A stretch of DNA of 41,538 nucleotides, from positions 1-41,538 of the forward strand of contig CALMZU010000306.1 of the NCBI GenBank assembly GCA_937870775.1. Direction: 5' to 3'. Source of the stretch: an uncultured Elusimicrobia bacterium (lineage in GTDB: Bacteria > Elusimicrobiota > Elusimicrobia > Elusimicrobiales > UBA9959). The stretch's first letter is position 1, and the number at the start of each line of letters is the position of its first letter. Both the position numbers and the translations under genes were made by a program. A model generated the notes under the pieces. It saw only the letters and a list, made by a program, of their open reading frames with translations, was not told where the DNA came from and ran no database searches. This document shows positions 1 to 1,779 of the stretch, in pieces.

Positions 1-11
1 TGATAATCATC

Positions 12-22
12 TAGAGGTCCCC
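12..22 (+). repeat. Left subterminal inverted repeat of IS1111-type element
   Basis: TAGAGGTCCCC, exact reverse complement of 1513-1523. Confidence 0.9.
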
Positions 23-79
23 TCCTGCAGGTTGTGTAAAATTGCTTTGTCGAGGAGCAAAGTTACAAACCTGAGGAGG
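21..79 (+). promoter_or_regulatory. 5' leader hairpin sequestering the transposase Shine-Dalgarno
   Basis: 21-26 cctcct pairs with 74-79 aggagg; 28-33 with 68-73; 35-39 with 63-67 (single-G bulges at 27 and 34); inner stem 45-49/58-62. The SD (73-79) is inside the stem. Confidence 0.65.
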
Positions 80-87
80 AGACACTT

Positions 88-1107
88 ATGAGATTATACG
101 CCGCAATCGACCTGCATTCCAACAACAGCGTACTGGTAATCCTGAACCAGAGCGATAAAGTCGTCTATGAGAAACGCCACCCGAACGACCTGCCGACGAT
201 CCTGGCGCAGTTGAAACCGCACAAAAAAAGCATCCAGGCAATAGCGGTTGAATCTACGTACAACTGGTACTGGCTGGTCGACGGTCTTCTGGAGGCCGGT
301 TACGAAGTGAAACTTGTAAACACGGTAGCAGTGAAGACATACGACGGGCTGAAGTACACCTCCGACGAGCACGACGCACGGCACCTGGCGCACCTGCTGA
401 GGTTGGGAATACTGCCGACGGCCTACATCTACCCGAAAGAAGAGCGCGCCGTGCGCGACCTGCTGCGCAAAAGGGCACAGTTAGTGCGGGACCGCGTCAC
501 GCATATCCTGAGCATCCAGAATCTGGTCACCCGCAACAGCGGCAAGCAGATAACGCAGGCCGGCATACGCAGGTTGGATGAAAATACGCTGGGGCTGTTC
601 TGCGGCGGAAACGCCTTCCGCGTAATGGCGATAAAAAGCAGTTTGGAGATTCTGCGCTGCCTCGACGGACAGATAGCGGTGCTTGAACGGAAAGCACTGG
701 AGCAGGCCAAGGTGAAGCCGGAGTTCAAGCAGGTGACGACAATCGACGGAATCGGGGAGATCCTCGGCATGACCATTATGTATGAAGCCGGGGACATGGA
801 GCGTTTTGAAGAAGTGGGGCAGTTCGCTTCGTACGCGCGGTGCGTGGGGAGTTCCCGCTGGAGCAACGGCAAGAAGAAGGGCGAGAACAACCGGAAAAAT
901 GGGAACAAGTACCTGGCCTGGGCGTTTGTGGAAGCGGCGCACCATGCCGTGCAGTATAACGAACGTGTCAAGAAGTTCTACCAGCGCAAGAAGGCACGCA
1001 CCAACAGCGTAGTAGCCTGGAAGGCGGTGGCGCACAAACTGGCGCGTGCCTGCTATCACGTGGTAAAGGATAGAATCGCTTTCGACGAGGCGCGGGCTTT
1101 CGCGTGA
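88..1107 (+). CDS. IS110-family transposase (DEDD N-terminal domain, Transposase_20 C-terminal domain)
   Basis: N-terminal AAIDLHSNNSV, conserved E in AVESTYNWYWLVDGL, DEHDARHLAHLL; C-terminal GSSRWSNGKKKG...RKNGNKYLAWAFVEAA typical of IS110 proteins; SD gaggagg upstream. Confidence 0.95.
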   Translation: MRLYAAIDLHSNNSVLVILNQSDKVVYEKRHPNDLPTILAQLKPHKKSIQAIAVESTYNWYWLVDGLLEAGYEVKLVNTVAVKTYDGLKYTSDEHDARHLAHLLRLGILPTAYIYPKEERAVRDLLRKRAQLVRDRVTHILSIQNLVTRNSGKQITQAGIRRLDENTLGLFCGGNAFRVMAIKSSLEILRCLDGQIAVLERKALEQAKVKPEFKQVTTIDGIGEILGMTIMYEAGDMERFEEVGQFASYARCVGSSRWSNGKKKGENNRKNGNKYLAWAFVEAAHHAVQYNERVKKFYQRKKARTNSVVAWKAVAHKLARACYHVVKDRIAFDEARAFA

Positions 1108-1512
1108 AGATTTGGTGCGGCAGGCGAGCTCGTGGGTTCGCTGGCAGAACCAGTAGCCTTGATTAGACGCCTGCCGCACCCGCTGTTTTAGGCGGAGACG
1201 CCCTGGTCGTGAGCCAATGAAGCGCTGGCGCGGCGCAAGCCGCAAGCCATAAACTTGTGGGCGGACATTTTGTTCGCCGTTAAATGGACACGACTGGGAA
1301 CCAACGGTTTTCTGGGCCCCGGTTACACGGGGCAGGGGCTTCGGCGGTAGTATTGCCGCGGCCTTGATCCTGATGGGTGCGTGGTGCGGCTTCGTCCGAC
1401 GCCACTTAAAGAGAACCAGGGAGCGGCTAAGCCTTGAGCAGCATGACAGAACGGATTTCTATGAGCGGAGAAACCACAAACCTGTGGTCGGAGAGGCTTT
1501 GCCTCTTGACTC
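1108..1512 (+). ncRNA. Candidate guide (seekRNA/bridge-RNA-like) non-coding region of the IS1111-type element
   Basis: No credible ORF; hairpins at 1114-1180 (13-bp perfect outer stem, internal loop, apical CTGG/CCAG hairpin), 1230-1243, 1260-1278, 1316-1333, 1344-1359, 1381-1405, 1473-1488, 1492-1506; 11-nt match to reconstructed target at 1371-1381. Exact RNA ends unknown. Confidence 0.6.
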
Positions 1513-1523
1513 GGGGACCTCTA
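1513..1523 (-). repeat. Right subterminal inverted repeat of IS1111-type element
   Basis: GGGGACCTCTA, exact reverse complement of 12-22. Confidence 0.9.
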
Positions 1524-1717
1524 ATGGGTGCGAACCCACTTCTCGCGGCAAGGAGCAGTGCGGGGCCGCGCTGCGTGGCCACGCCTGCGACGACATCTCG
1601 CGGATAAGCTTCCCCGTACCGCTGATCTAAAGACAGAAAGCAGCGTTTATATTGGGTTATCGGGGTTTTCGGCAAAGAAAAGTCGAACTTTAGTGCGAAG
1701 ACTCCGCCAGATTTCCC

Positions 1718-1755
1718 TAAACGAAGAACCCCGCCCATGCGGGGTTCTTCGTTTA
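1718..1755. terminator. Strong (bidirectional-capable) hairpin terminator
   Basis: 17-bp perfect stem TAAACGAAGAACCCCGC / GCGGGGTTCTTCGTTTA with CCAT loop. Confidence 0.75.
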
Positions 1756-1779
1756 TGTAAGGGTACGCCTTTGGGCGTC

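What the first reader, a model, noticed from the sequence alone, without database searches (positions are those of the whole stretch)
1371..1381. IS1111-type element whose 3' non-coding region carries a match to its own insertion target: candidate programmable guide RNA
Seen in sequence: the IRs end at 12 and 1523. Removing 5-1525 (AT treated as shared core) rejoins the flanks as TGAT|GGGTGCGAACCCA. The exact string TGATGGGTGCG occurs inside the element's non-coding region at 1371-1381, between hairpins 1344-1359 and 1381-1405. The right-flank part alone (ATGGGTGCG, 1524-1532) is a 9-nt exact match, which is unlikely by chance in ~400 nt. Known: IS110/IS1111 transposases are guided by element-encoded bridge RNA/seekRNA with short target- and donor-matching segments; in IS1111-type elements this RNA lies 3' of the transposase. 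Inference: this is the target-recognition segment of this element's guide RNA. Limitation: only 4 nt of left flank are visible.
Basis: partly seen in the sequence, partly recalled or inferred. Interest (0 to 1): 0.78.

Follow-up and report, generated by a model that had tools for sequence, protein, structure and literature searches.

The report
Bridge RNA of an IS1111-type element
The matched segment is real, but it is the part of this jumping gene's guide RNA that recognises the element's own right end rather than the part that picks the landing site; that part lies about 220 bases upstream, and the whole looks like a bridge RNA of a kind already described.

Summary
The window opens with an intact IS1111-type (IS110-family) element of an Elusimicrobia genome. 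TGATGGGTGCG is at 1371-1381 and is more than chance. The left flank was recovered from another contig, and about 20 uninterrupted copies of the target repeat read GCCT-TG-CGAACC or very near it, never TGATGGGTGCG. The element is 3-1528, between two TG cores (1-2 and 1529-1530).

The target guide is the hairpin just after the transposase gene (1114-1180): RTG 1132-1141 pairs with the right flank, and LTG 1155-1161 matches the left flank plus core.

Across relatives the end-matching letters agree 50/50. The handshake pair agrees in 15/16 close relatives and 41/50 overall (permutation means 5.9 and 24.6). The segment lies in a conserved multiloop, as reported for IS1111 bridge RNAs.

Its interest is natural evidence that IS1111-type donor loops are maintained, although an 82-nt target-only seekRNA moved ISEc11.

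The parts
1..2 (+). left copy of the TG core dinucleotide (target/element junction; the contig starts here)
   Evidence: left flank GTGCCGAGCCT-TG-ATAATC in C299; empty sites GAGCCT-TG-CGAACC
3..1528 (+). the IS1111-type element (plus one core copy)
   Evidence: ends set from empty copies of the target repeat; same logic fits REP-targeting relatives
12..22 (+). left subterminal inverted repeat TAGAGGTCCCC
88..1107 (+). transposase, 339 aa, DEDD (D8, E55, D93, D96 invariant) and S259
   Evidence: Pfam PF01548 and PF02371; NCBIfam NF033542 'IS110 family RNA-guided transposase' 193 bits, cut-off 140; invariant residues in 8 relatives
1114..1180 (+). target-binding hairpin/internal loop of the bridge RNA (corresponds to the seekRNA)
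   Evidence: consensus fold of 14 relatives with compensatory changes in the stem; variable loop matches flanks
1132..1141 (+). right target guide GTGGGTTCGC, complementary to top strand of right flank 1530-1539
   Evidence: 10-nt exact match; guide-flank pairing across relatives beats permutation
1155..1161 (+). left target guide AGCCT plus core TG, same sense as left flank
   Evidence: 9-nt exact match with the following AT; anchored permutation, 0 of 20,000
1162..1163 (+). AT: target-loop handshake guide, matches first two bases of the left end (3-4)
   Evidence: follows LE in AA- and AC-type relatives
1181..1443 (+). second domain of the RNA, with the donor-binding multiloop closed by 1306-1313/1410-1417
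   Evidence: consensus fold
   Evidence: ATGAG/ATGGG agrees between segment and right end in 50 of 50 elements
1378..1379 (+). core TG of the donor guide
   Evidence: constant TG in the segment, compatible with TG or CG cores by wobble
1380..1381 (+). donor-loop handshake guide CG, matches first two bases of right target 1531-1532
   Evidence: 15/16 close relatives, 41/50 all; permutation means 5.9 and 24.6, 0 of 100,000 reached
1506..1511 (+). -35-like TTGACT; with GATAAT at 2-7 forms an 18-bp-spaced promoter only when the ends are joined in a circle
   Evidence: same arrangement in 12 of 15 close elements
1513..1523 (+). right subterminal inverted repeat GGGGACCTCTA
1521..1528 (+). right end (left donor) CTAATGGG
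1529..1530 (+). right copy of the TG core
   Evidence: empty-site comparison
1531..1632 (+). right part of the interrupted dispersed repeat (target)
   Evidence: found in 30 of 32 genomes searched in the genus

Best explanation
The element encodes a transposase and, 3' of it, a bridge RNA with two guide loops. [quoted passage not shown] Each guide strand runs two bases past the core into the sequence it will meet after strand exchange: AT in loop 1 matches the left end, CG in loop 2 matches the right target. Shown here: sequence matches, conserved fold, covariation, empty sites. Inferred: that the RNA is made, binds the transposase and acts this way.
For: Empty sites define the ends and the TG core. 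Target guides match both flanks and follow the flanks across relatives. Segment vs right end: ATGAG or ATGGG agrees 50/50, including this element, which has ATGGG in both places while its close relatives have ATGAG in both. Handshake pair vs right target: 15/16 and 41/50. Target-loop handshake vs left end: 0 of 20,000 permutations in 45 elements. Consensus fold puts the segment in a multiloop, as Durrant et al. describe for many IS1111 elements (PMC11208160). Handshake guides are known from IS621 (PMC11208158). The corrected circle junction makes a TTGACT-18-GATAAT promoter. L031 is a natural test: it has two tandem target hairpins; the left flank matches the first and the right flank the second, as expected for a hybrid of two copies.
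Against: No right donor guide could be identified. Nine of 50 elements break the handshake match. A tree-aware pair test had only 4 supported pairs (about 2.6 concordant, none opposed), too few for significance. Siddiquee et al. moved ISEc11 with an 82-nt seekRNA that reads only the target (PMC11187229), so a donor loop was not needed in that assay. No RNA or activity data exist for this element.
Confidence: 0.87

Rival explanations
1. One reading: 1371-1381 is the target-recognition segment of the guide RNA.
Against: The rejoined site does not exist: empty copies read GAGCCTTGCGAACC and the string occurs once in the genome, in the element. The segment is near constant in relatives with different targets.
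Confidence: 0.03
2. A target-only seekRNA: only the first hairpin works, and the downstream segment is a conserved element for transcription, folding or protein binding whose likeness to the right end is incidental.
For: 82-nt seekRNA was enough for ISEc11 in a plasmid assay (PMC11187229).
Against: ATGRG agreement 50/50 and handshake agreement 41/50 between segment and DNA ends are not expected of an incidental likeness.
Confidence: 0.1
3. The segment and the right end are copies of one another made by gene conversion or duplication, not by selection for pairing.
For: The two stretches are near identical over 12 nt (CTGATGGGTGCG / CTAATGGGTGCG).
Against: The likeness stops sharply at the two handshake bases, crosses the element/target border, and recurs with different letters in many elements.
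Confidence: 0.03

Closest known systems
IS1111-group bridge RNAs predicted by Durrant et al. 2024 (ISCARN28, ISAzs32, ISPa11; PMC11208160)
   Same: RNA in the right end, target loop plus donor-matching letters in a multiloop, subterminal inverted repeats
   Different: different lineage (Elusimicrobia), TG/CG core; right donor guide not identified here. That paper shows predicted matches for six single elements of the two groups; here they are checked by covariation over 50 related elements
seekRNA of ISEc11, ISPa11, ISKpn4 (Siddiquee et al. 2024; PMC11187229)
   Same: hairpin downstream of the transposase, top-strand match 5' of bottom-strand match, promoter formed at the circle junction
IS621 bridge RNA with handshake guides (PMC11208160, PMC11208158)
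   Same: core dinucleotide in both loops; two handshake bases past the core in each loop
   Different: IS110 group, RNA in the left end, guide order reversed, simple internal donor loop

Membership tests
IS110 family, IS1111 group | DEDD transposase with IS110 N- and C-terminal domains, 330-350 aa | tested here: met
   339 aa; PF01548, PF02371, NF033542 above cut-off
IS110 family, IS1111 group | subterminal inverted repeats of 7-17 bp | tested here: met
   11-bp TAGAGGTCCCC / GGGGACCTCTA, inside the ends
IS110 family, IS1111 group | long non-coding region 3' of the transposase gene | tested here: met
   1108-1528, strongly folded, z -4.6
IS110 family, IS1111 group | conserved S(t)G in the C-terminal domain | tested here: inconclusive
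   every relative in which the motif could be read has S-N, mostly SNG. In the alignment to IS621 the N falls opposite the serine
bridge RNA / seekRNA | target guides matching top and bottom strand around a core, top-strand match first in IS1111 | tested here: met
   1132-1141 and 1155-1161
bridge RNA | left donor guide matching the element end plus core | tested here: met
   1370-1379 vs 1521-1530; 50/50 agreement of the variable letter
bridge RNA | right donor guide | tested here: inconclusive
   no covarying candidate seen in the multiloop
bridge RNA | handshake guides past the core in both loops | tested here: met
   donor loop 15/16 and 41/50; target loop 0 of 20,000 permutations in all, not informative in the close set alone
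bridge RNA | RNA expressed and bound by the transposase | not testable with these tools
   needs RNA data

The most novel reading that the evidence does not exclude
In IS1111-type elements the donor loop is functional and under selection, and a change of target needs three coordinated edits: both target guides and the two handshake bases of the donor loop. This would qualify the published view that an 82-nt target-only seekRNA is the complete guide.
Probability: 0.6. Interest if true: 0.55.

Novelty: new member of a known kind. Interest (0 to 1): 0.42.

Why it matters
Two 2024 papers describe IS1111 guides differently: one as a short target-only seekRNA, one as a bridge RNA with a donor loop. 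A set of natural elements with many different targets, in which the donor loop's letters follow the element end and the first two target bases, gives evidence from nature for the second view and says which bases would have to be edited together when retargeting. It also gives elements whose targets are known from empty sites.

Tried and rejected
Rfam: no hit on the element; the two sub-threshold hits at 1721-1760 are a terminator-like hairpin. Right donor guide: no candidate with covariation was seen. Viral contigs: no relatives. Tree-aware pair test of the handshake letters: concordant but too few pairs. First left-flank parsing failed on a wrong pattern and was redone; the anchors of L068 and L072 were still mis-parsed there, and L031 was scored with its first hairpin, which lowers the observed match. 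L005 (nearest intact relative) has an odd right end, CTAATGCCGCG, and dropped out of the test. The 55-bp overlap joins C299 to the window by assembly logic only, but the left guide and the repeat copies both support the join.

Full report
What the element is. The window starts two bases before an IS110-family element of the IS1111 type. The 339-aa transposase (88-1107) matches PF01548 and PF02371 and NCBIfam NF033542, 'IS110 family RNA-guided transposase', above its cut-off. Its RuvC residues D8, E55, D93 and D96 are invariant in eight relatives. Inverted repeats are at 12-22 and 1513-1523. Close relatives (70-87% transposase identity) were found in genomes of the same genus, family and class; named records of such elements are nearly all Elusimicrobia MAGs. 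Relatives at 52-61% occur in other phyla, mostly Proteobacteria and Nitrospirota.

The observation. TGATGGGTGCG is at 1371-1381. Contig C299 of the same genome ends with a 55-bp exact overlap with window 1-55 and gives the left flank GTAGTGCCGAGCCT-TG-ATAATCATC. The flanks belong to a dispersed repeat that was found in 30 of 32 genomes of the genus. Uninterrupted copies in the fetched loci read GCCTTGCGAACC or very near it, most often GTGCCGAGCCTTGCGAACC; two copies in the same genome are at C45 and C124. Hence AT (3-4) and AATGGG (1523-1528) belong to the element, the duplicated core is TG, and the target is GAGCCT-TG-CGAACCCAC. TGATGGGTGCG occurs once in the held genome, in the element. The same logic fits relatives that sit in REP-like palindromes: the flanks of L052 join to CCC-CG-ACACTACGC, and intact CCCGACACTACGCTGTCGGG (up to one mismatch) occurs in three genomes.

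The real target guide. Directly after the transposase stop lies a hairpin, 1114-1180, conserved in fold in 14 relatives with compensatory changes in the stem. Its 5' loop strand holds GTGGGTTCGC (1132-1141), complementary to right-flank bases 1530-1539. Its 3' loop strand holds AGCCTTGAT (1155-1163), equal to the left flank, core and first two element bases. This is the order reported for IS1111 seekRNAs (PMC11187229). In relatives these two stretches vary with the flanks. Position-anchored agreement beats permutation for the left guide (n=15 close, n=45 all; no permutation of 20,000 reached the observed value) and for the right guide (n=16 and n=49, likewise). A free longest-match test of the right guide gives the same answer.

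In relatives with quite different targets it reads CCTGATGRGTGnn, followed by TGG or TGA. Compared with each element's right end and flank (CTAATGRG-YG-nn), the segment agrees at ATGAG/ATGGG in 50 of 50 elements. This element is the informative case: it has ATGGG in both places while the other 15 close relatives have ATGAG in both. The core TG is constant in the segment and can pair with TG or, by wobble, CG. The last two letters equal the first two bases of the right target in 15 of 16 close relatives (expected 5.9) and 41 of 50 overall (expected 24.6); no permutation of 100,000 reached these values. The corresponding two letters in the target loop follow the left end of the element: AT, AA or AC. 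These are the positions called handshake guides in IS621 (PMC11208158). In the consensus fold the segment (1366-1381) is unpaired or weakly paired within a multiloop closed by 1306-1313/1410-1417 with hairpins 1316-1333, 1335-1365 and 1382-1404. Durrant et al. [quoted passage not shown]

Further support. With the corrected ends, the circle junction reads TTGACT-18 bp-GATAAT, and 12 of 15 close elements keep such a promoter; a junction promoter is known for ISEc11 (PMC11187229). L031 carries two tandem target hairpins. Its left flank GGTCG-TG matches the left guide of the first, and its right flank GCTTTCCT matches the right guide of the second. This is what recombination between two copies inserted at different sites would leave.

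Limits. No RNA or activity was measured. No right donor guide was identified. The elements are related by descent; a test on independent pairs of the tree had only four supported pairs, concordant on average in 2.6 and never opposed. ISEc11 could be moved with an 82-nt seekRNA that holds only target matches (PMC11187229), so the need for a donor loop in IS1111 elements is an open question which this data set favours answering with yes.

Verdict. The finding is real but its role was misassigned: donor guide, core and handshake bases of a bridge RNA, not the target guide. It is a new member of a known kind.

Noticed in passing
window 1531-1632; L036 1475-1664; L174 317-639 and 3882-4204; L175 364-693 and 10465-10794: The target is a dispersed repeat present in 30 of 32 genomes of the genus, with up to 26 matches in one genome. 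In the two places read it occurs as inverted pairs, about 320-330 bp arms at 97% identity, around 3-10 kb. No Rfam family matches it; its nature is unknown.
   Followed up: partly
L031 2600-3139 (G002 contig C62): Relative with two tandem target-binding hairpins; left flank matches the first, right flank the second, probably a recombinant of two copies.
   Followed up: partly
L052, L069, L014, L023, L040: Several relatives are inserted in REP-like palindromes (CCCGACACTACGCTGTCGGG); next to some lies an ORF that looks like a REP-associated tyrosine transposase by eye. In L014 a second element lies tail to tail in the other arm.
   Followed up: partly
L067; L002/L037 (C100); L018, L025: Other elements of this family sit at different positions and orientations in the same dispersed repeat, so it is a repeated landing site for several differently programmed elements.
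   Followed up: no
window 862-870 (S259-N260-G261) and relatives: The C-terminal motif is S-N (mostly SNG) throughout this subgroup, while the published motif is S(t)G; in the alignment to IS621 the catalytic serine falls opposite the N.
   Followed up: partly
L005 (G012 C109): Nearest intact relative has a right end CTAATGCCGCG lacking the usual ATGAG-YG, although its donor segment reads ATGAGTG; unexplained.
   Followed up: no
L036 3-1367: A group II intron with reverse transcriptase (PF00078; RF00029 domain at 1297-1367) ends shortly upstream of an empty copy of the repeat.
   Followed up: partly
window 1721-1760, - strand: Strong GC-rich hairpin resembling an intrinsic terminator just right of the repeat (sub-threshold RsmY/sX6 Rfam hits).
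   Followed up: no
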